IMG/VR virus record: IMGVR_UViG_3300020463_001912
Span: 1-24,323 of that record
Direction: 5' to 3' (one strand)
Source: a virus
DNA length: 24,323 nucleotides
In this document: positions 1 through 21,336 of the stretch, in pieces
How positions within the stretch are numbered: the first letter of the stretch is position 1
Layout: each line of letters begins with the position of its first letter
Position numbers and translations under genes: made by a program
The notes under the pieces: generated by a model
The model's database searches: none
Seen by the model: only the letters and a program-made list of their open reading frames with translations
What the model was told of the DNA's origin: nothing

Positions 1-1671
1 GTGGCAACAGGTAGAATTACAGAACTTGTATCAAGTTCTAATCCAAATGGCGAAATCAAAAAAGGTTTTAACACTGTAGGCACAGATTACAAATACATTG
101 GAACAGCAACAGTTGCCGAAGCACTTGTTGATGGTAATGGAACAATTAGAAATGCTGACAGTTATCTTGTGTCAGATGGTGATGACACAACTGTAGGTGC
201 ATTAACAATACAAAACAATGCAGGTTTAACAGTAGGTCTTAATAATAACACAAAATTACAATTTACAAACAATGCATTCACTATTGCCAATCAATTAACA
301 GGACAAGATGTAGAAATTAAAGTAAGAAATCCAGCAGAATTGTCTGCATTGAAAGTAGATGCAACAAACAGTAGAGTTGGAATTTACAAAGTATCACCTA
401 CAAAAACTTTAGACGTAGGTGGAGATGTTAATATTGATGGTAATCTTGTTGTTGCAGGTACAACAACATCCATAGATGTACAAGATTTAAGAGTAGAAGA
501 CAAAAATATTGAACTTGCAATAGACAGCAACGGTAATGTAGGTAATGATGCCGCAGTAGATGGTGGTGGTATTATATTAAAATCAAGTCAAGGTGACAAA
601 TCATTTGTATGGCAAGATGGTACAGACAGTTGGACAAGTTCTGAATTTATAGATTTAGCGGCGACTAAAGGAATAAAAATTAACACAAACACAGTTTTAA
701 CAGAAACGGCATTAGGTGCCAGTGTAACTACTGCACCTGGTTTAACAATACTTGGAACTTTAACACAATTAGTTGTAGATGATGTAACAGTTGATGGTTC
801 AAGTGTGTTTACTTCAGCAAACAGTTTACAATTAGGCAGTAATGGTCCAATCACAGTATTGAGCAGTAACAGAATTACAGGAGTAGGTTCACCAGTAAAT
901 GATTCAGATGTTGCAACAAAAGGTTACACAGATGGATCAACTGTAATAGGTTTAGATATGAACGTGACTGGATTGAATATGGCTTCGCCTTACAATGATG
1001 TAAGAGACGAATTAGAAAAATTATTCCCAGCAGGCGGTTACACATTGGCAAGTCCTAATAGACCAACAAATGCTAATTTTTCTAACAGTGTAATACCAGC
1101 AAGAGGACAAGGTGCATTGGCAAGAGTAAGAGCAGTGAACTATGGTTCAGGTGGTGGTTTCAGTATTCCAAGCATACCTTTTGCAGGTTTGAAAAACTTT
1201 ACACCAGTTGACCAAACAATTACTACTCAACAAAGAACAATACAGACTGTTACAACGTACAGTCAAGATAACAGTTTAGGTACAACAACAAAAATTACTT
1301 GTTCAGCATCACACTACTACGAAGCAGGTCAAGCCGTTGTTTTAACAGGCACAACTTTCAGTGGTGGTATTGGAACAATAGACGGAAACTACACGGTACA
1401 GTCGGCTGAATTTTCAGCAGAATCACCTAACTTTGTGTCATTAACAATAAACTATGACTCACAAGCGTCAGGATTAAATGGTGCCAACTATAATGCGGCA
1501 AGTGGTACTATTGAAAGAACACCTGTGGTAGGAAACGCAAACAAACAGGTAGTAGAAGACTTCTCAGACCCAACAGGAGTAACTGGACAGGTTACTTTTG
1601 CTCCAACAACAACGATTTTACAGTTTGGAGTGAACAATGGAGTGTGGGAGTTTGACAGAACAATACCGTAA
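1..1671 (+). CDS. tail-fibre-like virion protein, 5' end probably cut by window
   Basis: The reading frame is open from the first base (a GTG codon) to TAA, giving 556 residues. No upstream sequence or ribosome site is visible, so the true N-terminus may lie outside the window. The protein is rich in Thr, Asn, Val and Gly with short beta-strand-like repeats and very few Cys. Residues about 134-165 carry a 'LDVGGDVNIDGNLVVAGTTT' stretch and residues 292-311 an 'ITGVGSP..DSDVATKGYTD' stretch. Both are typical of phage tail-fibre or appendage proteins (family knowledge). It is likely a trimeric beta-structured fibre or baseplate appendage in the virion. The next virion gene follows 30 bp later behind a late-promoter motif, which supports a late structural role. 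I cannot tell which fibre component it is. Confidence 0.7.
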   Translation: MATGRITELVSSSNPNGEIKKGFNTVGTDYKYIGTATVAEALVDGNGTIRNADSYLVSDGDDTTVGALTIQNNAGLTVGLNNNTKLQFTNNAFTIANQLTGQDVEIKVRNPAELSALKVDATNSRVGIYKVSPTKTLDVGGDVNIDGNLVVAGTTTSIDVQDLRVEDKNIELAIDSNGNVGNDAAVDGGGIILKSSQGDKSFVWQDGTDSWTSSEFIDLAATKGIKINTNTVLTETALGASVTTAPGLTILGTLTQLVVDDVTVDGSSVFTSANSLQLGSNGPITVLSSNRITGVGSPVNDSDVATKGYTDGSTVIGLDMNVTGLNMASPYNDVRDELEKLFPAGGYTLASPNRPTNANFSNSVIPARGQGALARVRAVNYGSGGGFSIPSIPFAGLKNFTPVDQTITTQQRTIQTVTTYSQDNSLGTTTKITCSASHYYEAGQAVVLTGTTFSGGIGTIDGNYTVQSAEFSAESPNFVSLTINYDSQASGLNGANYNAASGTIERTPVVGNANKQVVEDFSDPTGVTGQVTFAPTTTILQFGVNNGVWEFDRTIP

Positions 1672-1701: not shown

Positions 1702-3171
1702 ATGGCATATATTGTAAACAAATTTGATGGAACTTTAATAGCAACTGTGCAAGACGGCACAGTGGATCAAACAACTAATCTAAGATTCATAGGTAAAAAC
1801 TATGCTGGATATGGTGAAATACAGAACGAAAACTTCTTACACCTATTAGAAAACTTTGCAAGTGGTAGTCAACCAAGTAAACCACTCAGTGGTCAGATAT
1901 GGTTTGACACATCAAACAGCAAATTGAAGTTCTATGATGGTACAAAATTCAGAACAACTGGTGGGGCAGAAGTAAGCACATCCGCTCCAGGTGGTTTAAC
2001 AACTGGTGACTTTTGGTGGGATTCAGCAAACAGTCAATTATATGCTTGGGACGGTACAAGTTTTGTGCTTGTTGGTCCTCAAGGTACAGGTTCTTCAGTA
2101 ACACAGTTTACAACAAGACAAATAAAAGATTCATTAAATGCAAATCAATTAATTATTGAAGGTAAAGTAAACAACACAACTGTTGTTCTTTTCAGCGGAA
2201 CTGAATTTACAATTGGTACAGCAGATCCAAACAACACAATCACAGGATTTGATGTTGTTAAAAAAGGTTTAACACTTGTAAACACTCAGGCGGCAACAAG
2301 TGGTATCACAACAACTGACCACAGATATTGGGGAACATCATCTAACTCAGATAGATTAGGTGGCTTCCTTGCTTCTGATTACATCAGATCAGGTTCAAGT
2401 GCTTTTGCAAGTATTGTAAGATTTGGTGATGCAGGATTCACAGTTGGTGATTCAAATGATTTAAAAGTTTCAATTGAAAATGGCAATGAAGGTGCTATTG
2501 CAAATGAAATAGGAACTAAAATTTCTTTAAAAGTAAATTCAAATAACGTTGTTACAAACATTGCAGAAGTAAATGCAGATGGAATAATGCCAGGCACAGG
2601 TAATAAAAATATTGGTGCTTCAAATGATCAATGGTATGAAGTTCATGCAAATTACTTTAAAGGATTGGCGGACAATGCATCAGGTATATACTTCGGTAGC
2701 CAAACTTATTTAGGTGCAACAACAGCCGTTAACAACACAGTGGCATTAAGAGATGGTACAGGTAAAATTACAGCAAATATTTTTGACGGTGTGGCAACAT
2801 CAGCCAACTATGCTGACTTGGCAGAGATATATTCTACAGACAAAGAATATGAAGTGGGTACAGTAATGGCAATTGGTGGTGATGCAGAAACAACTGAATA
2901 TGATAAAACAAAAAGTGCTTTTGGTGTAATATCCGAAAAACCAGGATTTTTGATGAACAAAGATGCTGAAGGTCAAGCGATTGCGTTTGTTGGTCGTGTA
3001 CCAGTAAAAGTAAATGGTGCTGTACAAAAAGGCGACAAAGTTTTTGCTGATGATGGTGGTGTTGCAACTACTACCAAAAAAGGAGAATTAATTGGTTTTG
3101 CACTGGCAACTGATACAAATGAATCCACAAAACTTGTTGAGGTAGCACTAAGACTTATAAATAATTCGTAG
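1702..3171 (+). CDS. phage fibre/appendage protein with Peptidase_G2-like C-terminal domain
   Basis: This 489-aa virion protein starts at an ATG preceded by AAGGG. The N-terminal third carries two copies of a Trp/Asp motif: 'GQIWFDTSNSKLKFYDG' near residues 64-80 and 'GDFWWDSANSQLYAWDG' near 103-119. Such repeats are common in fibre proteins of marine T4-like phages. The C-terminal 120 residues, from 'YADLAEIYSTDKEYEVGTVM' (about 369), resemble the Peptidase_G2 / intramolecular chaperone domain found on phage appendage proteins. That domain assists trimer folding and in some relatives cleaves itself off. The domain call rests on my recognition of the YADLAE...EPGTV-like pattern, and no catalytic residue was verified. 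The gene sits between two other structural genes and is flanked by late-promoter motifs. Confidence 0.7.
   Translation: MAYIVNKFDGTLIATVQDGTVDQTTNLRFIGKNYAGYGEIQNENFLHLLENFASGSQPSKPLSGQIWFDTSNSKLKFYDGTKFRTTGGAEVSTSAPGGLTTGDFWWDSANSQLYAWDGTSFVLVGPQGTGSSVTQFTTRQIKDSLNANQLIIEGKVNNTTVVLFSGTEFTIGTADPNNTITGFDVVKKGLTLVNTQAATSGITTTDHRYWGTSSNSDRLGGFLASDYIRSGSSAFASIVRFGDAGFTVGDSNDLKVSIENGNEGAIANEIGTKISLKVNSNNVVTNIAEVNADGIMPGTGNKNIGASNDQWYEVHANYFKGLADNASGIYFGSQTYLGATTAVNNTVALRDGTGKITANIFDGVATSANYADLAEIYSTDKEYEVGTVMAIGGDAETTEYDKTKSAFGVISEKPGFLMNKDAEGQAIAFVGRVPVKVNGAVQKGDKVFADDGGVATTTKKGELIGFALATDTNESTKLVEVALRLINNS
3156..3163 (+). promoter_or_regulatory. T4-type late promoter, exact TATAAATA
   Basis: TATAAATA matches the T4 late -10 consensus at all eight positions. 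It lies inside the last codons of the upstream fibre gene and 20 nt before the ATG at 3184, almost the same spacing as the motif at 1676. An AGGA site (3170-3173) lies between motif and start. Confidence 0.65.
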
Positions 3172-7553: not shown

Positions 7554-8211
7554 TATATTTTTTATATCATATCAAGAACCTAATGCAGATTCAAATTTTG
7601 CAATACTGCAAGATAGATTTCCTATTGCCCAACGGGTGCATGGTGTTAAGGGAATACATCAAGCACACAAAGAAGCCGCCAAAAAAGCATTGACAAAAAT
7701 GTTTTGGGTCGTTGATGGAGATGCGATTGTGGAAGAAGATTTCAATTTTGATTATGAAGTACCACAAAAAGATATGAATGCAGTACACGTGTGGAAAAGT
7801 CGCAATCCAGTGAATAATCTGGTATATGGATATGGCGGCGTCAAACTTTTACCCAGGGATTTGACGTTAAATATGAGTATAGGAACTACTGACATGACTA
7901 CAAGTATAAGTGATAGATTTAGACCAATGGAACAGATATCAAACGTTTCTGCTTTTAATACTACTTCTTTTAACACTTGGAAAAGTGCTTTTAGAGAGTG
8001 TGTAAAACTATCTAGCAAGGTCATAGACAGGCAAGAAGACGCTGAGACAGAAGCAAGATTAGATGCTTGGTGTAAGTCGGATGATCCTATGGCAGTTGAT
8101 GGAGCCATTGCTGGCAGGAAATATGGAACTGAAAATAAAAATAATAAGGAAGCAATATCTAAAATAAATGATTTTGAATGGATAAGACAAATATATAAAA
8201 ATGGAAAATAA
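7546..8211 (+). CDS. glycosyltransferase-like protein, second pair, short copy
   Basis: The 221-aa protein overlaps the previous gene by 8 nt. A strong AAAAGGAGA lies 7 nt before its ATG and fixes the start. It is a paralog of the gene upstream: 'SYQEPNADSNF' (8-18), 'AQRVHGVKGIHQAHKEA' (28-44) and 'WVVDGDAIVEEDF' (54-66) align block by block, with D57-G-D59 in place of DAD. 'VYGYGGVKLLP' matches the upstream copy's YGNGSLK segment. It is about 80 residues shorter, lacking most of the C-terminal region, so it may be a single catalytic domain or may have lost part of the acceptor side. A GT-A-like role is inferred from the DxD-type motif and the company it keeps. Confidence 0.55.
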   Translation: MFDIFFISYQEPNADSNFAILQDRFPIAQRVHGVKGIHQAHKEAAKKALTKMFWVVDGDAIVEEDFNFDYEVPQKDMNAVHVWKSRNPVNNLVYGYGGVKLLPRDLTLNMSIGTTDMTTSISDRFRPMEQISNVSAFNTTSFNTWKSAFRECVKLSSKVIDRQEDAETEARLDAWCKSDDPMAVDGAIAGRKYGTENKNNKEAISKINDFEWIRQIYKNGK

Positions 8212-9253
8212 TTTTAACATACCTTTTAAAAACATAGTTCAATTTGGACAACAAACAATGTTGGATTCCAAATTATTTTCAGTTAGTTGGATCTTAAGTA
8301 GATTTTGTAATTATAATTGTTCATATTGTTGGCCATATGCACACAGCAAAAAATCTGACCATCGACCATTAGAACAATATAAAAATACAATAGACGAGAT
8401 AAAAAGACAAGCAAAGAAAAATGGATTTTCTGATTTCCATTTCAGTTTCAGTGGAGGAGAACCTACTGCATACAAAAAATTTTTAGAATTAATTGAACAT
8501 TATAGCGGTGATAACGAAGCAAAATATCAAAGTATTCATATGACGACTAATCTAAGTCCTGGTATGAAATGGTGGTCACGTTGGATAGATGCAACAAAGA
8601 AATTATCACGTAGATCCATTACAGCAAGTTTTCATCATGAATTTGCAAACGAACAAGAGTTCGGGGACAAGATACTGATGTTGACTGATCATGATGTTTT
8701 TGTAACAATCAACCAAGTGATGGTGCCAGATCTTTTTGATGAATTGTATGCAAGATGTAAAAGATTTTGGGATAGAGGTATCAATGTCACACTTAAACCA
8801 ATGAGCGATCCTTCAGCAAGTTTTATTGTTGATGGTTACACTGATAAACAAAAAGAATTATTGCAACAAGGCTTTCCTCAACAGTTTCCTAACAAAAAAT
8901 ATAATAATTATGACAGTTTTGAATCTAATTGGGCAGACGGTCTAGATAATAAAATATATCAATTAAAATTAATAGACAAGGAGAAAAAAGAATACTTCCT
9001 TGATCAGGCAGAAAGACTAAATGCTTTCGGATTTAATAAATTTAAAGGTTGGAAATGCAATGCTGGTTTTCAAAGTTGCATAGTCAGGGAACCTGGTGGC
9101 GAGGTAAAAAGGAGTTACAGTTGTCACGACCAACCATTGGGCACTATAGAAGATGGATTCGATTTGTTTAATATGCCTATGCCATGTCTCACTCCAAGTT
9201 GTGTAAGCAGTGCTGATAGTAAAATACCAAAAAGGAAAATGGCAAATGTATAA
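8201..9253 (+). CDS. radical SAM enzyme with C-terminal Cys cluster
   Basis: The 350-aa protein overlaps the previous gene by 11 nt. CNYNCSYC (C36, C40, C43) is the CxxxCxxC site that binds the [4Fe-4S] cluster and S-adenosylmethionine, and GGEP (85-88) is the second radical SAM signature. The C-terminal 75 residues hold 'WKCNAG', then SC, SC, PC and SC pairs, consistent with a SPASM-like region binding one or two extra clusters. SPASM enzymes usually modify peptides or sugars/alcohols by hydrogen abstraction (family knowledge). The same WKCNAG block recurs in the gene at 14762 and, as WHCNIG, in the minus-strand gene at 16628-15666, making these three a paralog set. The start lacks a clear ribosome site but the overlap suggests coupling. 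The substrate is unknown. Confidence 0.85.
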   Translation: MENNFNIPFKNIVQFGQQTMLDSKLFSVSWILSRFCNYNCSYCWPYAHSKKSDHRPLEQYKNTIDEIKRQAKKNGFSDFHFSFSGGEPTAYKKFLELIEHYSGDNEAKYQSIHMTTNLSPGMKWWSRWIDATKKLSRRSITASFHHEFANEQEFGDKILMLTDHDVFVTINQVMVPDLFDELYARCKRFWDRGINVTLKPMSDPSASFIVDGYTDKQKELLQQGFPQQFPNKKYNNYDSFESNWADGLDNKIYQLKLIDKEKKEYFLDQAERLNAFGFNKFKGWKCNAGFQSCIVREPGGEVKRSYSCHDQPLGTIEDGFDLFNMPMPCLTPSCVSSADSKIPKRKMANV

Positions 9254-10232
9254 TTTTACAGATATTAGAGACGTGCATTTAGAAATTACCAGCAAGTGCC
9301 AGGCAAAATGTCCTATGTGTCCAAGAAGAATAAATGGTGGACCTATGAACCCATTTATAAAATTAGATGATATTACAATAGATAGATTCAAAGAATGGTT
9401 CCCGCAACATTTTATACAACAATTGAACAGTATGTTTATGTGCGGAAATTTAGGCGATCCGATTATAAGCAAGGATACTTTAAAAATATTTGAATATTTA
9501 AGATTAGTTAATCCACGGTTGAAACTGGCAATGCACACCAATGGTAGTGCAAGAGATCAAAATTGGTGGAAACAATTGGCACAACATAGAGTAGTTGTTA
9601 CTTTTGGTATTGATGGACTAGAAGATACAAATCATCTTTATCGTATAGCCACAAACTTTAAAAAGATAATCGAAAACGCCAAAGCATTTATAGGCCATGG
9701 AGGATATGCTAAATGGCATATGTTGGTTTTCGAACATAACGAACATCAAATAGAAGAAGCAAAACAGATGTCAATAGATTTAGGTTTTAAAATGTTCACA
9801 ACAAAAAACACAACTAGATTCAAAGATGATTATTTTCAGGTAATAGATGAAAAAGGAAAACCTTTGCACAAATTAAGACCGTCAGAAAAAAGTAAGGCTA
9901 TGAAGCCTATGATGGAGGAGGCAAGTAAACAAGTTAAAACAAGTATTGTATGTAAAGCAGTCAAGTATAAACAGATTTATGTGAGTGCTTGTGGAAACGT
10001 ATCACCTTGTTGTTGGCTCGATATGGAATGGTTACCGCCAATGCAAGAATCGAGAATAGATTATATGAAAAAAATAAAAAGATTTCCAAATCTATACAAA
10101 GAATCCTTACAAGAAATATTCGAAAGTAACTTTTTTAGTGATATAGAAGATACTTGGGAGATTACTCCTTTGCAAGAGTGCAGTAAACAGTGTGGAGCAT
10201 TTGATAAGTTAGGAGCACAATTTGAAAATTGA
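9246..10232 (+). CDS. radical SAM/SPASM-type enzyme
   Basis: I start this gene at the ATG at 9246, not an in-frame ATG at 9210. The later start gives an 8-nt overlap (ATGTATAA) with the upstream stop, has AAAAAGG upstream, and removes a non-conserved leader, leaving 328 aa. CQAKCPMC gives C18, C22 and C25, the radical SAM [4Fe-4S] site. The usual GGEP is replaced by 'CGNLGDP' near residues 66-72. The C-terminus has 'VCKAVKYKQIYVSACGNVSP' followed by CC and a late 'ECSKQC', the spacing expected for a SPASM domain carrying auxiliary Fe-S clusters. It lies between another radical SAM gene and a methyltransferase. The reaction is unknown, and peptide or carbohydrate modification fits the family. 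Confidence 0.85.
   Translation: MYNFTDIRDVHLEITSKCQAKCPMCPRRINGGPMNPFIKLDDITIDRFKEWFPQHFIQQLNSMFMCGNLGDPIISKDTLKIFEYLRLVNPRLKLAMHTNGSARDQNWWKQLAQHRVVVTFGIDGLEDTNHLYRIATNFKKIIENAKAFIGHGGYAKWHMLVFEHNEHQIEEAKQMSIDLGFKMFTTKNTTRFKDDYFQVIDEKGKPLHKLRPSEKSKAMKPMMEEASKQVKTSIVCKAVKYKQIYVSACGNVSPCCWLDMEWLPPMQESRIDYMKKIKRFPNLYKESLQEIFESNFFSDIEDTWEITPLQECSKQCGAFDKLGAQFEN
10211..10215 (+). promoter_or_regulatory. ribosome binding site AGGAG deciding a TTG start
   Basis: AGGAG ends 6 nt before TTG at 10222, the optimal distance, and there is no ATG nearby in that frame until 10255. This supports TTG as the start of the methyltransferase gene. The site lies inside the coding end of the upstream radical SAM gene. 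Confidence 0.7.
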
Positions 10233-10827
10233 GATAAAAGACGTGCTATTCTGGATGGATGCTATTAGGCAATCAGATGACAGATATAGAACTTTAGAAA
10301 GTTTCTGGAAAGGTCAAATTAATAGTAAGGTGTGGCTAATAGATCATTTAGAAAAATACTATCAAAATTTACCTTATAATATATTAGTGTGTGGTGGATG
10401 GAACGGAGTATTAGCAACATTATTATTCAACAGTAATCTTAATATCACGCGGATTGTTAGCATGGACATAGATCAAAATTGTGAAGAGATAGCCTATACT
10501 ATGAACAAAGATTATGAAATGCAAGGCAGGTTCAAAGCAATCACTTCAGATATGTTGACCTACGAAGATTATGGCAAACACAATTTAATAATTAATACGG
10601 TTTGTGAACATATGACTACTGAACAATATAATCAATGGTTAGACAGATTGCCTACAAACAAAAGAATAGTATTACAAAGCAATGACTATTTTAGTCATAA
10701 AGAACACGTAAATTGTAAACAAACTTTAAAAGAATTCCAACAAGATTGTAATTTAAATGTTGATATGGCGGCTACTATGCCAACAGAAAAATATAATAGA
10801 TTTATGATAATAGGACACAAAAAATGA
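10222..10827 (+). CDS. SAM-dependent methyltransferase (class I fold)
   Basis: The 201-aa protein starts at TTG, supported by AGGAG 6 nt upstream and an 11-nt overlap with the preceding gene. 'NILVCGGWNGVLATLLF' (53-69) is a Gly-rich motif I at the end of the first strand. 'IVSMDIDQNC' (78-87) ends the second strand with acidic residues that would bind the SAM ribose, and 'INTVCEHM' is in the position of motif IV. These are the landmarks of the Rossmann-like class I methyltransferases (family knowledge). It should be soluble and cytoplasmic. Its place between a radical SAM enzyme and an alternative oxidase gives no direct substrate clue. Methylation of a sugar, peptide or small molecule made by the operon is plausible. 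Confidence 0.75.
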   Translation: MKIEIKDVLFWMDAIRQSDDRYRTLESFWKGQINSKVWLIDHLEKYYQNLPYNILVCGGWNGVLATLLFNSNLNITRIVSMDIDQNCEEIAYTMNKDYEMQGRFKAITSDMLTYEDYGKHNLIINTVCEHMTTEQYNQWLDRLPTNKRIVLQSNDYFSHKEHVNCKQTLKEFQQDCNLNVDMAATMPTEKYNRFMIIGHKK

Positions 10828-11438
10828 AAGAACCAGTAAATTTTTCAGATAAGGTTGCTTATAAAATTACAATGTTCTTGCGTTGGATTGCTGATACATT
10901 TTTCAAAAAACGTTATGGACACAGGGCAGTTGTTTTAGAAACTGTTGCAGGTGTGCCTGGCATGGTTGCAGGTATGTGGAACCATTTAAGAAGTTTACGT
11001 AAAATGAAACCAGATGATCGAGGTTGGATTAAAACTTTGTTAGCAGAAGCGGAAAATGAACGTATGCATCTAATGATTTTTATCAGGATCGCAAAACCAA
11101 ATTGGTTTGAACGTTGGATGATTATTACAGCACAATTTATTTTCTGGCACTTCTATATGTTCTTGTACATATTTTTTCCACAGTGTGCCCACAGGATGGT
11201 AGGTTATTTTGAGGAACAAGCCTGCATTAGTTATACAGAATACTTAAAAGAAATAGATGAGGGAAGAACAGAAAACATTAAGGCGCCTAAAATTGCTATT
11301 GATTATTACAATTTACCTAAAGACGCAAAGTTGCGTGATGTTGTTATCGCTGTGCGAAAAGATGAAGAAGGACATAGGGACGTAAACCATGACATGGCAG
11401 ATCAAATAAGAAGGAATAGAGCAGGACTTATAAAATGA
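10824..11438 (+). CDS. aox: alternative oxidase (ubiquinol:oxygen oxidoreductase, mitochondrial/proteobacterial type)
   Basis: The 204-aa protein carries all four signature blocks of alternative oxidase in order: 'LETVAGVPGMVAGM' (38-51), 'AEAENERMHLM' (74-84), 'YFEEQACISYTEYL' (128-141) and 'DEEGHRDVNH' (180-189). The six diiron ligands expected for AOX can be placed at E39, E79, H82, E130 or E131, E181 and H184. A hydrophobic hairpin (98-118) matches the region by which AOX sits in one membrane leaflet. AOX oxidises quinol and reduces O2 to water without pumping protons (family knowledge). The NERMH and HRDVNH forms are of the mitochondrial/proteobacterial type, not the plastid PTOX type carried by cyanophages. 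It lacks the long mitochondrial N-terminus and is about the size of the bacterial catalytic core. It starts in an ATGA overlap with AGGA upstream, so it is part of the operon. Confidence 0.92.
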   Translation: MKEPVNFSDKVAYKITMFLRWIADTFFKKRYGHRAVVLETVAGVPGMVAGMWNHLRSLRKMKPDDRGWIKTLLAEAENERMHLMIFIRIAKPNWFERWMIITAQFIFWHFYMFLYIFFPQCAHRMVGYFEEQACISYTEYLKEIDEGRTENIKAPKIAIDYYNLPKDAKLRDVVIAVRKDEEGHRDVNHDMADQIRRNRAGLIK

Positions 11439-12139
11439 TAATGACCAACAAAGACATAGAAGAGTATCATAATATTGGTTTGGACACTGCAACAAAAGTG
11501 TTTAATAAATTTAAAGATGGAACTTTAGATTATCTAGAGTTAGATTTAGATTTTAATGATTACAAAGTTAAGCAGGAATTTAAAAACATTGACTCTTATT
11601 ATGTAGAACACAGAGAAGATGAATCTCATAAAGGTTGGGAGAGTTGTTGTTTACATGGATTAGATATAGATAAGACAAGAGTGGCAAAAGAATATGGTTA
11701 CAAAGATGAACTTAATGCTCCTTATAAATGGACAAAATTAAAAGACATGGCTCCAACAGCAAAAAAATTCTGGGAAGAATTTCCAGCAGAAAGATATAGT
11801 AGAATAAGATTTATGAAACTAAAACCATCAGGTATGATAGATTGGCACAATGATGATCCTGGTACAACATTACCAGATGACTTATGCGAATATCTTATAC
11901 CAATTAATGTTGCTGTGTTACATCCTGCCTTATGTTATATGGAAATTGAACCAGAAAAAATTATTCCGTGGAAACATGGCAAAGTGTTTTTAGTAAACAT
12001 TTTAAAAAATCATAGAGTGGTAAACAATTCGAATGTGGATAGAATACACATGATTGCCCAAGCACACATCGGAAACAAAAGAAAAGCATTTAACGAATTA
12101 CTAGATAGGAGTATACAAAAATATGGCGTTTCTATTTGA
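11435..12139 (+). CDS. 2-oxoglutarate/Fe(II) oxygenase, aspartyl/asparaginyl hydroxylase-like
   Basis: The 234-aa protein starts in an ATGA overlap with the AOX gene, with AGGA 9 nt upstream. 'MIDWHNDDPG' supplies H138 and D140 of the iron-binding HxD. 'NHRVVNNSNVDRIHMIAQ' supplies the distal H193, with R203 exactly ten residues later to bind the 2OG carboxylate. This H-x10-R spacing is typical of the double-stranded beta-helix oxygenases. The NHRV..NSN.DRIH pattern resembles aspartyl/asparaginyl beta-hydroxylases and related phage proteins. It would hydroxylate an amino-acid side chain or small molecule using O2. An alternative start at the third residue (also ATG) is possible. The substrate is unknown. 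Confidence 0.8.
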   Translation: MIMTNKDIEEYHNIGLDTATKVFNKFKDGTLDYLELDLDFNDYKVKQEFKNIDSYYVEHREDESHKGWESCCLHGLDIDKTRVAKEYGYKDELNAPYKWTKLKDMAPTAKKFWEEFPAERYSRIRFMKLKPSGMIDWHNDDPGTTLPDDLCEYLIPINVAVLHPALCYMEIEPEKIIPWKHGKVFLVNILKNHRVVNNSNVDRIHMIAQAHIGNKRKAFNELLDRSIQKYGVSI

Positions 12140-13511
12140 AGCACAAACAAAAGAAAAGAAAAATATTGTATTCATTTGTAACACAAATTTTCATCAGATA
12201 GATAATATCAGTGCAAAAGAAACAATTATGAATATCGCTGAGTATCAAATCAGTAATATTACTAGTAAAGGATATGATTGCTATGTTGCTATAAGTGAAG
12301 ACACGACCCTACAAAAAGTGGCAGACGATTATGATTATGCAGTGTGTTACAGCACAGATACAGAATTTGAAGGAGATAAATTTTTTGAGCATCTACATGG
12401 ACTTATCAAATCAGAATTTCTTGTTGCAGGACATATCTTAGATAGAAAAGAAGGTTGGTATGAAGTTCATGAACAATGTTATGTAATAAATCTGAAGAAA
12501 TACAAAGAATACGAATGTCCTGAAATAGGAGAATTTAAAAGAAATGCAGAACATTTCGAAACTGTGCCTATTAGGAGTGATGAAAATTTTCATGATAATC
12601 ACACTCCTCTCTGGATTAAGCCAGGAACCGAAATGATAAAATATAAACACAAATGGCACGGATGGAATCTATTAAGAGTAGCCTTCGACAATAAAGAAGA
12701 AGTGATTGTGTTCGATGAAAATATAAGACATTCTAAAAGATGTTATTATGCCGCACACGAAACTGATTATATCGAAAATAGTAGTCACATACTAAAAAAA
12801 TATAATCTTAGTGCTAGTAGATTATTTTACCCTATAAACACAGAAGAGGTGGTATCCTTACCTGATTTTGTCGGTCCTATCAAACAATTGGTTACGCCTG
12901 CAAGTGGTTTTAACTGGTTGAAATATTTAGATAAATATGGTTATAACGAAGATACGGAAGTTATATTTTATGACTATAATCCTAATGCTTTATACTATAT
13001 GCAGACTATAATTGAAAAATATGAAGGTGGAGATTTACATAAATTTCTAAAACAAAACAATACTCATAGAACTCCAGACTGGATTAATAGCAAGAAAGAT
13101 ATTGCAGATTATATCAGTAAAATAGGAAATTTATTAGGAATAAGAAGTAAATTAAAATTCAAATACGTTGAATGCGATTTATTGAATGAATTTAATCTTA
13201 AATTTAAAAATGACAAAGGCACAATTTTAAATATTAGCAATATATTCGCTTATGAACCAACAGCGGCAGTGGTGCCAACAAAGCAAAGAGTATTCAGAGA
13301 AAACAAACTTATTAAATTACTTCATGAAAAATATGATAAGATTCATTTAATAGCATCTATGCACTCATGGACAGGCTTTGTAGACTACCCTATGTTAGCA
13401 GGTCCAGTCACTAAATTTACACCGTGCGATATAGAATCAATGAGAGCACCGTTATGGCGTTTTGGAAAGGATTGGAAAAATCCAAAGGATCCTCATGAAG
13501 AAGATGAATAA
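12123..13511 (+). CDS. two-domain unknown protein; C-terminal half possibly methyltransferase-like
   Basis: The 462-aa protein overlaps the upstream gene by 17 nt, with AGGAG 11 nt before its ATG. I do not recognise the whole protein. The N-terminal half (1-250) begins with a hydrophobic strand 'NIVFICNTNFH' and includes an 'AGHILDRKEGWYEVHEQCYV' segment that could belong to a glycosyltransferase- or flavodoxin-like alpha/beta domain. In the C-terminal half, 'TPASGFNWLKYL' (258-269) followed by 'EVIFYDYNPNAL' (279-290) and 'ILNISNIFAYEP' resembles the strand-loop-helix, acidic-strand and motif-IV order of class I methyltransferases. The Gly-rich loop is atypical. No Cys cluster or membrane segment is seen. 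It is followed by a radical SAM gene that begins inside its last codons. Confidence 0.45.
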   Translation: MAFLFEAQTKEKKNIVFICNTNFHQIDNISAKETIMNIAEYQISNITSKGYDCYVAISEDTTLQKVADDYDYAVCYSTDTEFEGDKFFEHLHGLIKSEFLVAGHILDRKEGWYEVHEQCYVINLKKYKEYECPEIGEFKRNAEHFETVPIRSDENFHDNHTPLWIKPGTEMIKYKHKWHGWNLLRVAFDNKEEVIVFDENIRHSKRCYYAAHETDYIENSSHILKKYNLSASRLFYPINTEEVVSLPDFVGPIKQLVTPASGFNWLKYLDKYGYNEDTEVIFYDYNPNALYYMQTIIEKYEGGDLHKFLKQNNTHRTPDWINSKKDIADYISKIGNLLGIRSKLKFKYVECDLLNEFNLKFKNDKGTILNISNIFAYEPTAAVVPTKQRVFRENKLIKLLHEKYDKIHLIASMHSWTGFVDYPMLAGPVTKFTPCDIESMRAPLWRFGKDWKNPKDPHEEDE

Positions 13512-14769
13512 CAGTTGTACTTTCTGTATGCATCCTTTCACAGGACTTGCTACTAGAGAAGATGGGGCAATTAAAGTTTGTTGTCGTAGTCTTCCTATTG
13601 GTAATATCAAAGATATGAGTTTAGAGGAAGCATGGAATTCAGATAAAATGAAGCAAGTAAGAAAACAAGTGCTTAACGGAGAACGACCTGATGTATGTCA
13701 ACCTTGTTTTGATTTAGAAGATCAAGGCGTACAAAGTTTACGGCAAAGACATATTACAGATTCATCTCCCGAGTCAAGAAGTAATTTATATCCTAATGCT
13801 TTAGATACTTTGAGTGCAGACTATTCTATGCCTTTTCAATTGCCGACAATGGAAATAAAAATAGATAATTTATGCAATTTAAAATGTAGAATGTGTAATC
13901 CTTTGGACAGTACACAATGGAAAGATTGGAGCAGTATAGTATCGCATTATGAAAAGGAAGGAAATTATCTTGTAGAGGCAGTCAAAGGATTAGGATTAGA
14001 AAAGGCCCCATATGTAGGATTGTTTGAAGACAAATCACACTTTTGGGAAAATTTAGAAAAATTACTACCTTACTTTAAAAGAGTAGAATTTGCAGGTGGT
14101 GAACCTTTAATGGCTCCTTCACATTATAAAATTTTAGATTTACTGGCAAAAAATGGAAAGAATATTGAAATAAAATATGCAACAAATGGCACTACTCTTG
14201 GTATTAAAGGTGGCAGAAATATATTTGAGTATTGGCCTAAATTTAAAAGTGTTGCTGTAAATGTAAGTATAGATGGATTGCATAACACATATGAATACAT
14301 AAGAGGAAATAGTAAGTTTGCAGATGTAGAACACAATATTAAAGAAATGAAGAAAATTCCAACAGTCAGTCGTATTGTTGGAGCGTTTACAGTTCAAGCA
14401 AATAACATTTTACAAATTGACAAAGTTATTGATTATTTTTTGAATGAAATGCAAATTGTATTTTATAGTCATAGAGTAAATTATCCTAGAGCCTTATCGG
14501 CACAAGTTTTACCGGAAGAATTAAAACAAGCAGTGGTTGTAAAACTAGAAGCATTGAAGAATAAAGTTAAAGACTATAAGATGGTCAAAAAATATCCTGT
14601 GTTAGAAAAAATTACTTTACAACAGATACAAGACAATATTAATTTTTTACAAGCAAGAGACCTTAATCATTATTGGGAAGACTGTGTTGATTTTAATAAA
14701 AAATTAGATATTTCACGTAAGCAAGGACCTTTTGAAAAAATTAATCCGGAGTTTGCCGCTTATGTTTAA
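13495..14769 (+). CDS. N-twitch radical SAM protein
   Basis: I place the start at the ATG at 13495, which follows AGGA by 5 nt and gives 424 aa. An ATG at 13504 is a close alternative, and the longer TTG frame from 13462 is unlikely. The protein begins with a Cys-rich 'twitch' half-SPASM region: C8, C11, C29-C30, C68 and C71, with the 'AWNSDKMKQVRKQVLNG' helix. The radical SAM core follows, with CNLKCRMC (C127, C131, C134) and GGEP (201-204). Having the auxiliary-cluster region ahead of the core is characteristic of the twitch-domain radical SAM family. Members are common in marine phage and bacterial surface-polysaccharide loci (general recollection). It pairs with the short radical SAM gene downstream, and the pair recurs in mirror image on the other strand. 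Confidence 0.85.
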   Translation: MKKMNNSCTFCMHPFTGLATREDGAIKVCCRSLPIGNIKDMSLEEAWNSDKMKQVRKQVLNGERPDVCQPCFDLEDQGVQSLRQRHITDSSPESRSNLYPNALDTLSADYSMPFQLPTMEIKIDNLCNLKCRMCNPLDSTQWKDWSSIVSHYEKEGNYLVEAVKGLGLEKAPYVGLFEDKSHFWENLEKLLPYFKRVEFAGGEPLMAPSHYKILDLLAKNGKNIEIKYATNGTTLGIKGGRNIFEYWPKFKSVAVNVSIDGLHNTYEYIRGNSKFADVEHNIKEMKKIPTVSRIVGAFTVQANNILQIDKVIDYFLNEMQIVFYSHRVNYPRALSAQVLPEELKQAVVVKLEALKNKVKDYKMVKKYPVLEKITLQQIQDNINFLQARDLNHYWEDCVDFNKKLDISRKQGPFEKINPEFAAYV

Positions 14770-15676
14770 AGTTGAACATTTATATAAACACGTACAAGGA
14801 AGCGTCAAAGTAGAATGGAATCTTGGAAAACGTTGTAATTATGATTGTACATACTGCCCTGCAGAGATACATGATAATACAAGTAAACACACAGACATAA
14901 AAATTTTAAAAGGAGCAGTTGATGATTTAATAGCGTCTATGCCTAGCAACGATACAAAAGTAAGAATTAGTTTTACAGGTGGAGAACCTTGCGTACATCC
15001 AAAATTTTTACAACTTTTAGAATACGCAAGACCAAAAGTTAGTTGGTTAAATGTGACAACAAATGGAACCCGTACTCCAAAATATTATATGCACCTTTTA
15101 GATAATTTGGTAGATCATTTGGTATTCAGTTTGCACTTTGAATATGACCACCAAAAAGTTTTGAATTCAATTTTAAGGGCCGCACAAGGGTCTGAAAACA
15201 AAAATATACTTGTACACGTAATGATGCTTCCTGGACGTTTATACGACGTCAAAGACGTTTGCAGACACCTTTCTGATGAGCAAATAAAGTTTGCTCTAAG
15301 ACCAATCCGTTGGACTCAAACTCATGATATTTTTGAAGACATGAATCGGTACTCTCCAGAAGAATTAGATTTTTTGAAATTGGAAAACCATAATCCACCA
15401 CATAATGTTTTGATAGACAATGGACCAAAAACTTGTAACGTGAATGATATGCTTATCCAAAAAACTAATCAATTTAAAAATTGGAAATGCAATGCAGGAC
15501 TTGAAAGTTTAATGATTAATTGGGACGGAGTTGTTCACAGAGCAACTTGTAGAGTTGGCGGCAGTCTAGGAAACATTTATAAAGGCACATTTAACAAACC
15601 AACTGAACCTATCAATTGCACAAGAGATTGGTGCACCTGTGCCGCTGATATTAATATTACAAAAGTTAAATCCTAA
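14762..15676 (+). CDS. short radical SAM enzyme with C-terminal Cys cluster (plus-strand partner)
   Basis: The start is set at the ATG at 14762, which overlaps the upstream stop by 8 nt (ATGTTTAA) and has GGAG 10 nt upstream, giving 304 aa. The in-frame TTG at 14732 is rejected. CNYDCTYC gives C25, C29 and C32, and GGEP lies at 73-76. The C-terminus has 'WKCNAGLES', a following 'ATCRV', 'INC' and 'WCTC', a Cys array like a SPASM region. The N-terminal block 'VEWNLGKRCNYDCTYC' and the C-terminal array align with the minus-strand gene at 16628-15666. The two genes run tail-to-tail, overlapping by 11 bp. It is the last gene of the operon that begins at 4115. The substrate is unknown. Confidence 0.85.
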   Translation: MFKVEHLYKHVQGSVKVEWNLGKRCNYDCTYCPAEIHDNTSKHTDIKILKGAVDDLIASMPSNDTKVRISFTGGEPCVHPKFLQLLEYARPKVSWLNVTTNGTRTPKYYMHLLDNLVDHLVFSLHFEYDHQKVLNSILRAAQGSENKNILVHVMMLPGRLYDVKDVCRHLSDEQIKFALRPIRWTQTHDIFEDMNRYSPEELDFLKLENHNPPHNVLIDNGPKTCNVNDMLIQKTNQFKNWKCNAGLESLMINWDGVVHRATCRVGGSLGNIYKGTFNKPTEPINCTRDWCTCAADINITKVKS

Positions 15677-16628
15677 CTTTATCCAATAAACTTTCTGGCT
15701 GACACATACAAGTATTTGTTTTATCACAAATTTTAGGTTTTATGTCTGGATCAAACTTTTCTACAAAATCTTTATCATAAATGTTATAGTTGTCAAACAG
15801 TCTTGTTCTACAAGCACCTGTAATAATACCTTCGGGATCAATCATCATACTGTCTACTCCTATGTTACAATGCCATCCATAGAAATCATTCTGCTTGTTT
15901 AACACAATCCAGTTCCTGTTTACTCGCTTTTTAGAGCCGTCTTCAAACACAACAACAGGATTATCTTTTAAATGTTTTCTATTTTTCCAAATGTGCCATA
16001 TGCTAGGTCGTCTTTTTGTAGGCTTGGCTACAAATGCCCGTTGTTCATCTGTGTAGTTGATTGTTTCGTGCATGACTTCCATAGCACTGATAAACCATGG
16101 GTGTTTACTTGTTTTGCAAGTTTCAATCAGTGACAAGCACTTGTCCCATGCAGAAGGATCCATCAAAACCATTACATTTGGACTTCTACCCATCTCATGT
16201 AGTGTGTCGCTTACTTTTACAAAATGTTCTATGTCTACTTCTTTGTGATGACAACTTAATAAAATTTTATCAAACACAGTGCCGAACTTCTGCCACCATC
16301 TTAAAGTTCTACTACCATTACTACTAATAGTGATGTAGGCAGGAATATGTTTTCTTATTTCAGTTACAAATTCTCCTAACTTGGGCCACAGAGTGGGTTC
16401 ACCTCCTACAATGTGTAATTCTAACATTTCTTTGCCTACTGCTTTGTATTTTTTGAATAGATGCTTAAAATTTTCTACTAGTTGCTCCATGTCGTCAGTC
16501 CAACGATGTGTGCCTTCATGCGATCCCTTGAAACAATACCAGCAATTAAAATTACAAGTATTTCCTATCATGAACTCTATACGCAGTAAATTTTTAGGTT
16601 GTGGATTATGTACCTGTACTATGTTCAT
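15666..16628 (-). CDS. short radical SAM enzyme with C-terminal Cys cluster (minus-strand partner)
   Basis: The 320-aa protein starts in an ATGA overlap with the upstream twitch radical SAM gene, with AGGA 8 nt before the ATG. CNFNCWYC gives C25, C29 and C32, and GGEP lies at 75-78. The C-terminus carries 'WHCNIGVDS', 'GAC', 'KIC' and 'TCMC', which parallels the WKC/ATC/INC/WCTC series of the plus-strand partner. Its stop overlaps the stop of that gene by 11 bp. It is the last gene of the four-gene minus-strand operon. Oxidation or rearrangement of a peptide or sugar would fit the family, and the sequence does not say which. A 'MVLMDPSAWDKCLSL' segment in the middle is ordinary core. Confidence 0.85.
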   Translation of the reverse strand: MNIVQVHNPQPKNLLRIEFMIGNTCNFNCWYCFKGSHEGTHRWTDDMEQLVENFKHLFKKYKAVGKEMLELHIVGGEPTLWPKLGEFVTEIRKHIPAYITISSNGSRTLRWWQKFGTVFDKILLSCHHKEVDIEHFVKVSDTLHEMGRSPNVMVLMDPSAWDKCLSLIETCKTSKHPWFISAMEVMHETINYTDEQRAFVAKPTKRRPSIWHIWKNRKHLKDNPVVVFEDGSKKRVNRNWIVLNKQNDFYGWHCNIGVDSMMIDPEGIITGACRTRLFDNYNIYDKDFVEKFDPDIKPKICDKTNTCMCQPESLLDKVRI

Positions 16629-18043
16629 AGCAAGTGTCCTATTTCAGGAAATATGTTTTTAGCATTTACACCACGTATTGCATCTAACTTATTGACATAT
16701 TCTTTAAATCCTGGCAACAGAAATGAATTATCTTTCTGATTCATATGTGCCAATACAGCCTCCCAACGACGCCAACCATATGGATTATTTTTCCAATACT
16801 CATCGTCTTGTCTATAATTGTGCCATAACCAATCTTTAAATTCTAAAAATCTTTCTTGTACTTCTTGTTTGTCTTCTTTGGGTAATATTTGTATGCTTAA
16901 AAAAGTTGGTATGTACAATAAGTGCATATTCACAAGTCCACCTCCCATTTGCACATCGCCAGGCACTGTGCCCAAATTTAATTTTTTAAATCCACTTTCT
17001 ACTTTCCATTTCATAAAGTCAGGCAAATGTTTTACATTAAAAATTTGTATAGCAGTTGCTAAACTAGTTTGTATGTTGTCTGGAGTGTTGTCTAACATCT
17101 GTAAATTTTTTTCCACAATATCCCATTTAGTAGGAAACCTTATATATTCGTCACGTTCTTTGATTGCATCCATGCTCACCGCAAATTTAACTTTTTTAAA
17201 TTTACTCCATAATTCAATCAAATCTTTGTCCACTAATATTCCATTTGAATTGTAACGCAATAATATTTTGTCTTGATAGCCTTGTCTGATTATTTCTTCA
17301 ATAAACTTTTTGTGTTCTTTTATCATTAAAGGTTCACCACCAGCAAAATAAACTTGTTTCAGTTTAGGAATTTGTTTAAACATCTCTTCCCAGAACTCAG
17401 GCTTTTCATGCCAGAAGTTGTTAAATTCTTTCTTGCCCCATTGAAGTTGATCCTTAACGTGTTTATCTTTTAATTGTGGCATTAATTCTTTCCAATCTTT
17501 TACCCATTTACTACTGTCGTGGGGTGAACACATTACACATTTTATATTGCAAGTATGACCTAATCTTAAATCTAAATATAATAAATCCTCTGGCACCGTT
17601 CCATCTTCTTTGGTTTGCTGTATTAATTCAGGAATATCTACACCATCTTTATACCATGTGCCTGTTTCCCATACACGTTTACTAACAACTCCAACTTTTT
17701 CTTCTTCAAAGCATTTACTACAACTAGAAGGTATTTGTCCTTTCAACATTGTGGTTCTGACACTTTTCATATACGCATTATTCCAAGCACTCATAGGAGT
17801 ATCTTTTCCGAAATTTGCTGGCGTACCATCTTCCTTTTTGATTATTCCTACTTCATGGTCGGAACCTGCACCACTGGCGTTTGCTGAACAGCACAATCTC
17901 ATATCTCCGTTAGGTCTTGTAGCAAAATGTATCCAAGGCAATATACAAAAAGTAGGACTACCTGACACAGATTGTAATTCTCTTTGCCATTTACCTAATT
18001 GTGAATCCTCAGGATTAATCCAATATTCCTTATTATCCGACAT
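16625..18043 (-). CDS. N-twitch radical SAM protein (minus-strand copy)
   Basis: The 472-aa protein starts at an ATG 6 nt after AGGA and overlaps the upstream SGNH gene by 11 nt. It repeats the architecture of the gene at 13495. An N-terminal Cys-rich twitch region (C33, C51-C52, C108, C111, with 'AWNNAYMKSVRTTMLKG') is followed by a radical SAM core with CNIKCVMC (C165, C169, C172) and GGEP (235-238). The long Trp-rich C-terminal half (about 290-472) has no extra Cys cluster. It is longer than its plus-strand relative mainly in the linker between twitch and core and in the C-terminus. It is immediately followed by a short radical SAM gene, as on the plus strand. Confidence 0.85.
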   Translation of the reverse strand: MSDNKEYWINPEDSQLGKWQRELQSVSGSPTFCILPWIHFATRPNGDMRLCCSANASGAGSDHEVGIIKKEDGTPANFGKDTPMSAWNNAYMKSVRTTMLKGQIPSSCSKCFEEEKVGVVSKRVWETGTWYKDGVDIPELIQQTKEDGTVPEDLLYLDLRLGHTCNIKCVMCSPHDSSKWVKDWKELMPQLKDKHVKDQLQWGKKEFNNFWHEKPEFWEEMFKQIPKLKQVYFAGGEPLMIKEHKKFIEEIIRQGYQDKILLRYNSNGILVDKDLIELWSKFKKVKFAVSMDAIKERDEYIRFPTKWDIVEKNLQMLDNTPDNIQTSLATAIQIFNVKHLPDFMKWKVESGFKKLNLGTVPGDVQMGGGLVNMHLLYIPTFLSIQILPKEDKQEVQERFLEFKDWLWHNYRQDDEYWKNNPYGWRRWEAVLAHMNQKDNSFLLPGFKEYVNKLDAIRGVNAKNIFPEIGHLL

Positions 18044-20200: not shown

Positions 20201-20807
20201 AAATTTTTACAAATTTAAGGGAGGACTCGCTGTGACGAATATGCTTTACGAGCCTCTTGTTAGCAACGACAAAAAAATTTTCTGTATGAACTGGAATGTA
20301 AATGAATATTTTGATAATGCTGAAATGTCTGAAGAATTATACAACTTTTGGTTTAATCAAGAATTAAAATATCTGTTGCATTTAAGCAACAAAAAATATA
20401 TTCCTGAAATATTGTTAATTGATACAAAAAAACGTATCATAGAATTTAAATGGTACAATAAAAATCTAAATGTAATGATAGAAAACAACACAATCAACAA
20501 AGTTAAGGATTGGCAAAAGAAGATAAAAGCAATTAAAGATGATTTAGAGAAGGATAACATATTCAAAATTAATATGTACCCACACACTTTCTTCTTTGAC
20601 GATGACGGAAACGCATACGTAATGGATCTTTATGGTTGCACAGACAAGCAAACAAGATATTTGGACACAAAATATCTAAAACCTCTAATTCGCACTGATA
20701 GATTTGATAAATTTATAATAAACGACCAATTAGACACACATGAATTGTATAATGAAACTATTAAAACTAACTATGCCGAATGGCCGGGAGATTTTTTAAA
20801 TGCTTGA
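20187..20807 (+). CDS. unknown protein, possibly kinase-fold (aminoglycoside-phosphotransferase-like)
   Basis: From the ATG at 20187 the protein has 206 aa and overlaps the upstream gene by 14 nt, but that ATG has no ribosome site. A GTG at 20232 with AAGGGAGGA 6 nt upstream is a strong rival start (191 aa). Near residues 129-151 the order 'NMYPHTFFFDDDG' then 'YVMDLYGC' resembles the catalytic loop and DFG-like metal motif of small-molecule kinases. An earlier 'IFCMNW' strand could hold the nucleotide. The classic HxD...N is not exact, so the kinase idea is tentative. A Lys-rich helix (104-122) precedes the loop. If correct, it would phosphorylate a sugar or similar compound. It ends in an 8-nt overlap with the first of three oxygenase paralogs. 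Confidence 0.5.
   Translation: MENFKNFYKFKGGLAVTNMLYEPLVSNDKKIFCMNWNVNEYFDNAEMSEELYNFWFNQELKYLLHLSNKKYIPEILLIDTKKRIIEFKWYNKNLNVMIENNTINKVKDWQKKIKAIKDDLEKDNIFKINMYPHTFFFDDDGNAYVMDLYGCTDKQTRYLDTKYLKPLIRTDRFDKFIINDQLDTHELYNETIKTNYAEWPGDFLNA
20217..20225 (+). promoter_or_regulatory. near-perfect ribosome binding site AAGGGAGGA before an internal GTG
   Basis: AAGGGAGGA is among the strongest Shine-Dalgarno sequences in the window and ends 6 nt before an in-frame GTG at 20232. If the ATG at 20187 were the start, this stretch would encode codons AAG GGA GGA CTC GCT GTG ACG, which are rare choices in this AT-rich genome. That suggests the stretch is kept as a ribosome site. Confidence 0.5.
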
Positions 20808-21336
20808 GTTTGTAGGTAATTGTAATCATATCCTTAATTGGAATGAAATAATAAATGAAGTAAAAGACCAAGAAGGTAAATGTGCCTGCAAGTATCTACC
20901 TGTGTCAGATGTACCAGAATTAAAAGAGATTAATGACGCACTGGGCAAATACTGCCAACCATCTATAGAATGGATCAACTATTACCCAGGCAAAGAGTTT
21001 TCAATGGAGATAGCAGAGAAGTTTGGCGAATTTGTTGGTGCTCCTAGAATGATTAAGAGTTGGATATCTAAAATATATCCTGGAAAGACTGCTCCATGGC
21101 ATTGGGATTGGGACGTTGACTGGAAGAAATACACAGAACAAGGCAATCCTGTAAGATTCACAGCAATGATTAATGAACCTGCACCAGGACACGTGTTTAT
21201 TGTAGGTGATGAAGCATTATATAATCAGAAACAAGGAGATGTTCACAAATGGCCTGACTTTAAATCATATCATGGCGGAACTAATTGTGGACTTGTACCT
21301 AAATTTAATTTTAATTACTTGGCATACGCAGAATGA
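20800..21336 (+). CDS. 2OG-oxygenase-like protein, tandem paralog 1 (Lys variant)
   Basis: The 178-aa protein overlaps the preceding gene by 8 nt. 'APWHWDWDVD' supplies H101 and D103 of the HxD iron site, and 'SYHGGTNCGLVPKFN' supplies the distal H158. The residue ten places on, where Arg normally binds 2-oxoglutarate, is K168. The N-terminal 'FVGNCNHILNWNEII' block opens all three paralogs, and 'QKQGDVHKWPD' also recurs in the second. Fold and iron site are well supported. Cofactor use is less sure because of the Lys. A few oxygenases such as FIH also use Lys for this contact, though from another position (family knowledge). Likely a small hydroxylase of a phage- or host-made substrate. Confidence 0.72.
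   Translation: MLEFVGNCNHILNWNEIINEVKDQEGKCACKYLPVSDVPELKEINDALGKYCQPSIEWINYYPGKEFSMEIAEKFGEFVGAPRMIKSWISKIYPGKTAPWHWDWDVDWKKYTEQGNPVRFTAMINEPAPGHVFIVGDEALYNQKQGDVHKWPDFKSYHGGTNCGLVPKFNFNYLAYAE

What the first reader, a model, noticed from the sequence alone, without database searches (positions are those of the whole stretch)
10824..11438. Mitochondrial/proteobacterial-type alternative oxidase carried on a phage-like contig
All four AOX signature blocks and the six expected diiron ligands are present. The forms (NERMH, GHRDVNH) are those of ubiquinol AOX, not of the plastoquinol PTOX known from cyanophages. A virus-encoded AOX of this type would let the phage redirect host electron flow away from proton pumping during infection. 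I do not know of a description of this type on phages. It sits inside an operon coupled by start/stop overlaps, so it is not a stray ORF.
Basis: partly seen in the sequence, partly recalled or inferred. Interest (0 to 1): 0.88.

Follow-up and report, generated by a model that had tools for sequence, protein, structure and literature searches.

The report
Phage-encoded bacterial-type alternative oxidase
A large marine virus of bacteria carries an intact gene for alternative oxidase, an enzyme that passes respiratory electrons straight to oxygen without storing energy, and close relatives of this gene sit in many other, mostly unrelated, bacterial viruses, which appears not to have been described before.

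Summary
ORF 10824-11438 (+) encodes a 204-aa alternative oxidase (Pfam AOX, E=2.8e-82). All six diiron ligands and the catalytic tyrosine are present, and the AlphaFold model matches trypanosome AOX (TM 0.89). It is the proteobacterial ubiquinol type; cyanophage PTOX is far more distant.

The phage linkage is real. The window is colinear at 93% with an independent 62-kb contig carrying a portal gene, and at about 70-78% with a 134-kb contig carrying major capsid, terminase, portal and protease genes. That contig's capsid and terminase are closest to jumbo phages (PA5oct, Phosso). At least 91 IMG/VR contigs encode close relatives; a looser scan found 503 (capped).

Ten AOX-bearing records hold capsid or terminase genes, including the complete phage C48C1, whose AOX is annotated "hypothetical". 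Nearly the same AOX (96% aa) sits in an otherwise unrelated 172-kb phage, so the gene moves between phages. dN/dS is about 0.04.

Most likely role (inferred): during infection it feeds host ubiquinol electrons to O2 without proton pumping, keeping NADH reoxidation and biosynthesis running. Host and activity are untested.

Virus-encoded PTOX is known in cyanophages and prasinoviruses. I found no published report of ubiquinol-type AOX in phages.

The parts
10824..11438 (+). alternative oxidase (ubiquinol:O2 oxidoreductase type), 204 aa
   Evidence: Pfam PF01786 E=2.8e-82; fold match to trypanosome AOX 3vv9, TM 0.89, rmsd 2.4; all six diiron ligands; median dN/dS 0.043 in the window-type clade
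10222..10827 (+). gene immediately upstream, overlapping AOX by ATGA; looks like a Rossmann-type methyltransferase by eye, no Pfam, PHROG or NCBIfam hit
11435..12139 (+). gene immediately downstream, overlapping AOX by ATGA; aspartyl/asparaginyl beta-hydroxylase-like oxygenase
   Evidence: Pfam PF05118 E=5.3e-9
9210..10232 (+). radical SAM/SPASM protein in the same gene string
   Evidence: Pfam PF04055 E=4.1e-9, PF13186 E=2.5e-6
1..1671 (+). virion structural protein (phage anchor in the window)
   Evidence: PHROG 6002 virion structural protein E=4.1e-17
1702..3171 (+). tail-fibre/structural protein with Peptidase_G2 autoproteolytic domain (phage anchor)
   Evidence: PF11962 E=7e-8; PHROG 19602 tail fiber E=4.3e-11; best hits are jumbo phages Atu_ph07, Phosso, Callisto

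Best explanation
The gene encodes a functional bacterial-type alternative oxidase, carried as an auxiliary metabolic gene by a large T4-superfamily (jumbo-type) marine phage that infects a respiring, ubiquinone-using, probably proteobacterial host. The protein would attach to the host cytoplasmic membrane, oxidise host ubiquinol at a non-haem diiron centre and reduce O2 to water without pumping protons. This bypasses the cytochrome bc1/oxidase branch. By doing so the phage would keep NADH oxidation, the TCA cycle and precursor synthesis running, and the quinone pool from over-reduction, while host oxidases are no longer renewed or when proton-motive force would throttle respiration. Shown: gene identity, intact active site, predicted fold, phage linkage, purifying selection, and recurrence in unrelated phages. 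Inferred: enzymatic activity, membrane attachment, host, and benefit during infection.
For: Pfam AOX 276 bits. AF2 model pLDDT 80.6 whose only significant PDB matches are trypanosome AOX chains, TM 0.88-0.90. All six ligands and catalytic Tyr conserved. Virion genes on the same contigs: gp23 capsid on 9 records, and TerL on one further record; portal, protease, SbcCD and late sigma on the contigs colinear with the window. Capsid of the colinear 134-kb contig is 73% identical to Phosso and 68% to PA5oct; its TerL is 56% identical to PA5oct-like phages. Complete circular phage C48C1 carries an AOX between clamp and clamp-loader genes. dN/dS median 0.043 over 165 pairs in the window-type clade. 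The same AOX lies in a different phage backbone, L014/G003, where only AOX is shared with the window; that contig has phage baseplate, DNA polymerase and RNR genes and an alphaproteobacterial/permuted tmRNA. No psbA in 27 AOX records argues against cyanobacterial hosts.
Against: No biochemical or expression data are available. No AOX contig of IMG/VR is shown as complete, so partner genes could be missed. The host of the window's own phage is unknown; no tRNA, tmRNA or other Rfam hit was found in the window or in the searched parts of its colinear contigs. The AF2 model is only moderately confident around residues 21-50 (block means 57-69), which include the first ligand.
Confidence: 0.74

Rival explanations
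1. The AOX is mainly an oxygen scavenger that protects oxygen-sensitive [4Fe-4S] radical SAM enzymes. Six radical SAM proteins are encoded in this window, around the AOX.
For: Radical SAM genes lie next to AOX in the window. 14 of 52 sampled proteins from the window and from the neighbourhoods of the window-type and sister phage AOX are radical SAM.
Against: In the third group of AOX phages only 2 of 89 neighbouring proteins are radical SAM. C48C1 has its AOX among replication genes. Directly downstream in the window is a hydroxylase of a kind that itself consumes O2.
Confidence: 0.08
2. The AOX serves to lower the proton-motive force, helping lysis timing or excluding superinfecting phages, rather than to keep respiration going.
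For: AOX is non-pumping, so it would lower the proton yield per electron (established biochemistry of the family).
Against: No lysis or holin gene was recognised beside it in the window scans. It lies in a cargo stretch in the window and in replication genes in C48C1. AOX alone does not collapse the gradient.
Confidence: 0.08
3. It is a diverged cyanophage plastoquinol oxidase (PTOX) acting in a photosynthetic host.
For: PTOX is a well-known cyanophage gene of the same superfamily (PMC3037559).
Against: Cyanophage PTOX is about 26% identical to C48C1 AOX over the aligned part, and the window protein finds none in the phage collection at E<=0.01. NERMH/RDVNH/GYFEE motifs are those of ubiquinol AOX, while cyanophage PTOX reads NETEH/EVEVHA. 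No psbA in 27 AOX records.
Confidence: 0.02
4. The AOX is a chance-captured host gene or an assembly chimera without function for the phage.
For: Window ends are open; single short-read contigs can be chimeric.
Against: Colinear in about 20 other contigs; virion genes on the same molecule; median dN/dS 0.043, lower than most neighbouring genes; nested inside a phage clade with 100/99 support.
Confidence: 0.02

Closest known systems
Proteobacterial ubiquinol alternative oxidase (Pfam PF01786), e.g. Limnobacter sp. 130, Litoricola, Puniceispirillum, Pelagibacteraceae
   Same: Same family, similar length, same motifs; about 63-74% identical over nearly the full protein
   Different: The window copy belongs to a phage-only branch with 100/99 support and lies on a phage genome
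Cyanophage plastoquinol terminal oxidase (PTOX, PHROG 4235)
   Same: Same diiron quinol-oxidase superfamily; a virus-encoded non-pumping quinol oxidase, proposed to balance ATP and NADPH in infected cells (PMC3037559)
   Different: About 26% identity to C48C1 AOX, different motifs, shorter (167 aa), sits with gnd and zwf (and petE in one phage) in a photosynthesis/carbon cassette
Prasinovirus PTOX/alternative oxidase (Micromonas viruses)
   Same: Virus-encoded alternative oxidase superfamily member (PMC12584671)
   Different: Plastid-type PTOX in eukaryotic algal viruses, near cyanophage PTOX in that paper's tree
Phage C48C1 (OQ984149) CDS0028, WJE87901.1
   Same: AOX on a complete phage genome, 55% identical
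   Different: Annotated 'hypothetical protein'; separate placement in the tree, on a long branch near Polynucleobacter; located between clamp and clamp loader
PA5oct/Phosso/Vibrio 2.275.O jumbo phages
   Same: Closest cultured phages by capsid (68-73%) and terminase (50-56%) of the colinear contig G004, and in part by the tail-fibre gene of the window
   Different: The phage protein search finds an AOX only in C48C1, so none was found in these

Membership tests
Alternative oxidase (ubiquinol type) | Match to the AOX profile over the catalytic domain | tested here: met
   PF01786 E=2.8e-82, profile 14-216 of 216
Alternative oxidase (ubiquinol type) | Six diiron ligands (4 Glu, 2 His) and catalytic Tyr | tested here: met
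   E39, E79, H82, E130, E181, H184, Y137 aligned with trypanosome AOX; invariant in 22 phage sequences
Alternative oxidase (ubiquinol type) | Helical bundle fold of AOX | tested here: met
   AF2 model, TM 0.89 to 3vv9, rmsd 2.4; membrane binding itself not tested
Alternative oxidase (ubiquinol type) | Groups with ubiquinol AOX and not with PTOX in a tree | tested here: met
   Inside proteobacterial/phage AOX, phage clade 100/99; the AU test against PTOX was uninformative because PTOX is one long branch
Alternative oxidase (ubiquinol type) | Cyanide-insensitive quinol:O2 oxidoreductase activity | not testable with these tools
   needs an enzyme assay
Cyanophage PTOX | PTOX motifs (NETEH, EVEVHA) and PHROG 4235 membership | tested here: not met
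   PHROG 4235 only E=7.5e-4; motifs differ
Cyanophage PTOX | Carried with photosynthesis genes in a cyanobacterial virus | tested here: not met
   no PF00124 (psbA/psbD) in 27 AOX-bearing phage records; most of the contigs are fragments
Phage auxiliary metabolic gene | Physically linked to virion genes on the same molecule | tested here: met
   gp23/TerL/portal on the same contigs, including contigs colinear with the window; C48C1 complete genome
Phage auxiliary metabolic gene | Kept by selection in phages | tested here: met
   median dN/dS 0.043, maximum 0.109 over 165 pairs
Phage auxiliary metabolic gene | Expressed and changes host metabolism during infection | not testable with these tools
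   no transcript or infection data
PA5oct/Phosso-type jumbo phages (for the carrier) | Capsid and terminase closest to this group | tested here: met
   Tested on the colinear contig G004: MCP 73% Phosso, TerL 56% PA5oct-like
PA5oct/Phosso-type jumbo phages (for the carrier) | Genome over 200 kb | tested here: inconclusive
   longest contig colinear with the window is 134 kb and open-ended

The most novel reading that the evidence does not exclude
Phages of non-photosynthetic marine bacteria share a phage-owned, mobile ubiquinol AOX. It moves between unrelated phage backbones and has been handed back to bacteria (Limnobacter and a Baikal Pelagibacteraceae nest among the phage rows), so viral redirection of bacterial respiration is a general infection strategy, parallel to PTOX in cyanophages.
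Probability: 0.35. Interest if true: 0.78.

Novelty: new variant of a known kind. Interest (0 to 1): 0.64.

Why it matters
In the papers I could search, virus-encoded quinol oxidases are discussed only for photosynthetic hosts. A widespread, selected, non-pumping ubiquinol oxidase in phages of respiring bacteria would mean that such phages alter oxygen consumption per ATP during infection. That is measurable and would matter for how viral infection is counted in marine carbon and oxygen budgets. Since AOX needs no haem or copper (general knowledge of the family), it is a plausible one-gene route to respiratory control that can be tested directly in E. coli oxidase mutants.

Tried and rejected
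Cyanophage-PTOX origin: rejected by profile, motifs, identity and tree. Chimera or cellular contamination: rejected by colinear independent contigs and virion genes. AU test of window plus PTOX as one clade (p 0.345) was uninformative: PTOX is a single very long branch, so the test mostly asks where the root attaches. AU test of a single viral clade (p 0.264) did not reject one origin, although the best tree nests four bacterial rows among the phages, so the number of acquisitions is unresolved. TerL_nuclease PF20441 was the wrong marker for T4-type terminases and gave 0 of 36; PF03237 worked. Complete bypass with a phage NDH-2 dehydrogenase: no convincing Pyr_redox_2 gene in 28 records. Cupredoxin partner: only 2 of 28. 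Host from tRNA or other Rfam RNAs in the window and colinear contigs: none found. The name C48C1 gave no relevant paper. NCBIfam gave no family for the AOX.

Full report
OBSERVATION. The ORF at 10824-11438 (+) is real and complete: 204 aa, ATG to TGA, joined to its neighbours by ATGA overlaps on both sides. Pfam gives AOX PF01786 at E=2.8e-82. The PHROG profile for cyanophage PTOX gives only E=7.5e-4. The six ligands are E39, E79, H82, E130, E181 and H184 with Tyr137; they align with trypanosome AOX and are invariant in 22 phage sequences. A 26-sequence AlphaFold model (pLDDT 80.6) finds trypanosome AOX as its only significant PDB match, with TM 0.88-0.90. A sequence profile also finds only trypanosome AOX.

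PHAGE LINKAGE. The window is an IMG/VR virus record of 24,323 bases. Its first genes are virion or tail-fibre proteins, the second with best hits in jumbo phages. L002/G001 (62 kb) is colinear with the window at 93% nt over 20.6 kb and carries portal, SbcCD and late sigma genes. L019/G004 (134 kb) is colinear at about 70-78% and carries gp23 capsid, TerL, portal and prohead protease. The G004 capsid is 73% identical to Sinorhizobium phage Phosso (469 kb), 72% to Vibrio phage 2.275.O (349 kb) and 68% to PA5oct (287 kb); its TerL is 56% identical to PA5oct-like phages. The carrier is therefore probably a jumbo-type T4-superfamily phage. In all, ten AOX-bearing records have capsid and/or TerL on the same molecule, including the complete circular phage C48C1, whose AOX lies between clamp and clamp loader and is annotated 'hypothetical'.

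HOW WIDESPREAD. Some IMG/VR entries may be cellular, so these are counts of candidates, not of proven phages. L014/G003 (172 kb) shares only the AOX gene with the window (96% aa, 86.7% nt). G003 has baseplate, phage DNA polymerase and phage RNR genes and a permuted/alphaproteobacterial tmRNA. Nearly the same oxidase is therefore found in unrelated phages, which points to transfer between them. In other phages AOX lies beside DUF1127 genes, a cupredoxin and a tail sheath gene, or nucleotide-metabolism genes.

EVOLUTION. In a 71-row tree the window sequence is in a phage-only clade with support 100/99, within a larger group of 41 phage and 4 bacterial rows. Cyanophage PTOX is far outside. One of the nearest 'bacterial' hits, the Verrucomicrobia TMED56 MAG, is in fact a phage contig and was counted as phage. 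Limnobacter and a Baikal Pelagibacteraceae have bacterial flanking genes and nest among phages, which hints at return transfer. A single viral origin is not rejected (p-AU 0.264) and not shown. C48C1 is a separate, long-branched row. dN/dS within the window-type clade is 0.043 at the median and 0.109 at most (165 pairs), below most neighbouring genes.

HOST. There is no direct evidence for the window's own host. Absence of psbA in 27 AOX records argues against cyanobacteria. The tmRNA of G003 and the DUF1127 genes point to Alphaproteobacteria for other AOX phages (the link of DUF1127 to that class is from my own knowledge). Among 197 genomes of the order of the Baikal Pelagibacteraceae (G035), 72 carry an AOX, so some plausible hosts have one and others may lack it.

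MECHANISM. From the established biochemistry of the family, the product should oxidise ubiquinol and reduce O2 to water without pumping protons. No convincing phage-encoded NDH-2 was found, so it would plug into the host quinone pool as a single part. The best-supported reading is an electron sink, independent of proton-motive force, that keeps NADH reoxidation and precursor supply going when host oxidases are not renewed. This is inference. Oxygen scavenging for radical SAM enzymes is a tempting local idea, because the window has six of them, but it does not generalise to other AOX phages.

LITERATURE. In the held library, the papers I found that join 'alternative oxidase' with viruses concern cyanophage PTOX (PMC3037559, PMC12584671) or prasinoviruses (PMC12584671, PMC12906663); PMC7472177 uses the term once in a cyanophage paper that I did not read further. 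An estuarine viral survey mentions only PTOX (PMC13079714). Surveys of pelagimyophages and marine jumbo phages do not mention it in their main text (PMC7029224, PMC9123017). The pelagimyophage survey does describe radical SAM cassettes in host-recognition islands, which resembles this window. Only open-licence papers are held, and supplements were not searched, so absence is not proof.

VERDICT. The gene, its type and its phage location are solid. The function in infection and the host are untested. Kind: a new variant of a known kind, a virus-encoded quinol oxidase, now of ubiquinol type in phages of apparently non-photosynthetic hosts.

Noticed in passing
window 8201-9253, 9210-10232, 13462-14769, 14732-15676 (+); 15666-16628, 16625-18043 (-): Six radical SAM proteins, several with SPASM or Fer4_12 domains, in one stretch of a phage genome; function unknown.
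   Followed up: partly
window 20800-21336, 21333-21887, 21884-22414 (+): Three tandem genes with similar starts (VGNCNHILNWNEII / IGNCNDVIDWNAVV / VGNCSDAFDWEQII), apparently tandem paralogs joined by start/stop overlaps; the first has no Pfam hit.
   Followed up: no
window 1702-3171 (+): Tail-fibre-like protein ending in a Peptidase_G2 autoproteolytic domain.
   Followed up: no
L083 (NHDJ01000025.1, Verrucomicrobia bacterium TMED56 MAG): A phage contig that appears to be mis-binned into a bacterial MAG: several flanking genes are 77-89% identical to phage contigs.
   Followed up: yes
L189:6042-6425 (G003, 172-kb AOX phage): A permuted, alphaproteobacterial-type tmRNA gene on a phage contig.
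   Followed up: partly
L055:9200-9628; by eye also L050:9460-9702, L041:9387-9644, L183:9415-9660: DUF1127 genes, followed by a second small conserved gene, lie directly upstream of AOX in several phages.
   Followed up: partly
L176:10787-11212; G018:C1:64220-64480: A cupredoxin (plastocyanin/azurin family) gene next to AOX and near a tail sheath gene in one phage contig, and in one further AOX contig.
   Followed up: partly
OQ984149.1 26279-26830 (Phage C48C1 CDS0028): An AOX annotated as 'hypothetical protein' in a complete phage genome.
   Followed up: yes
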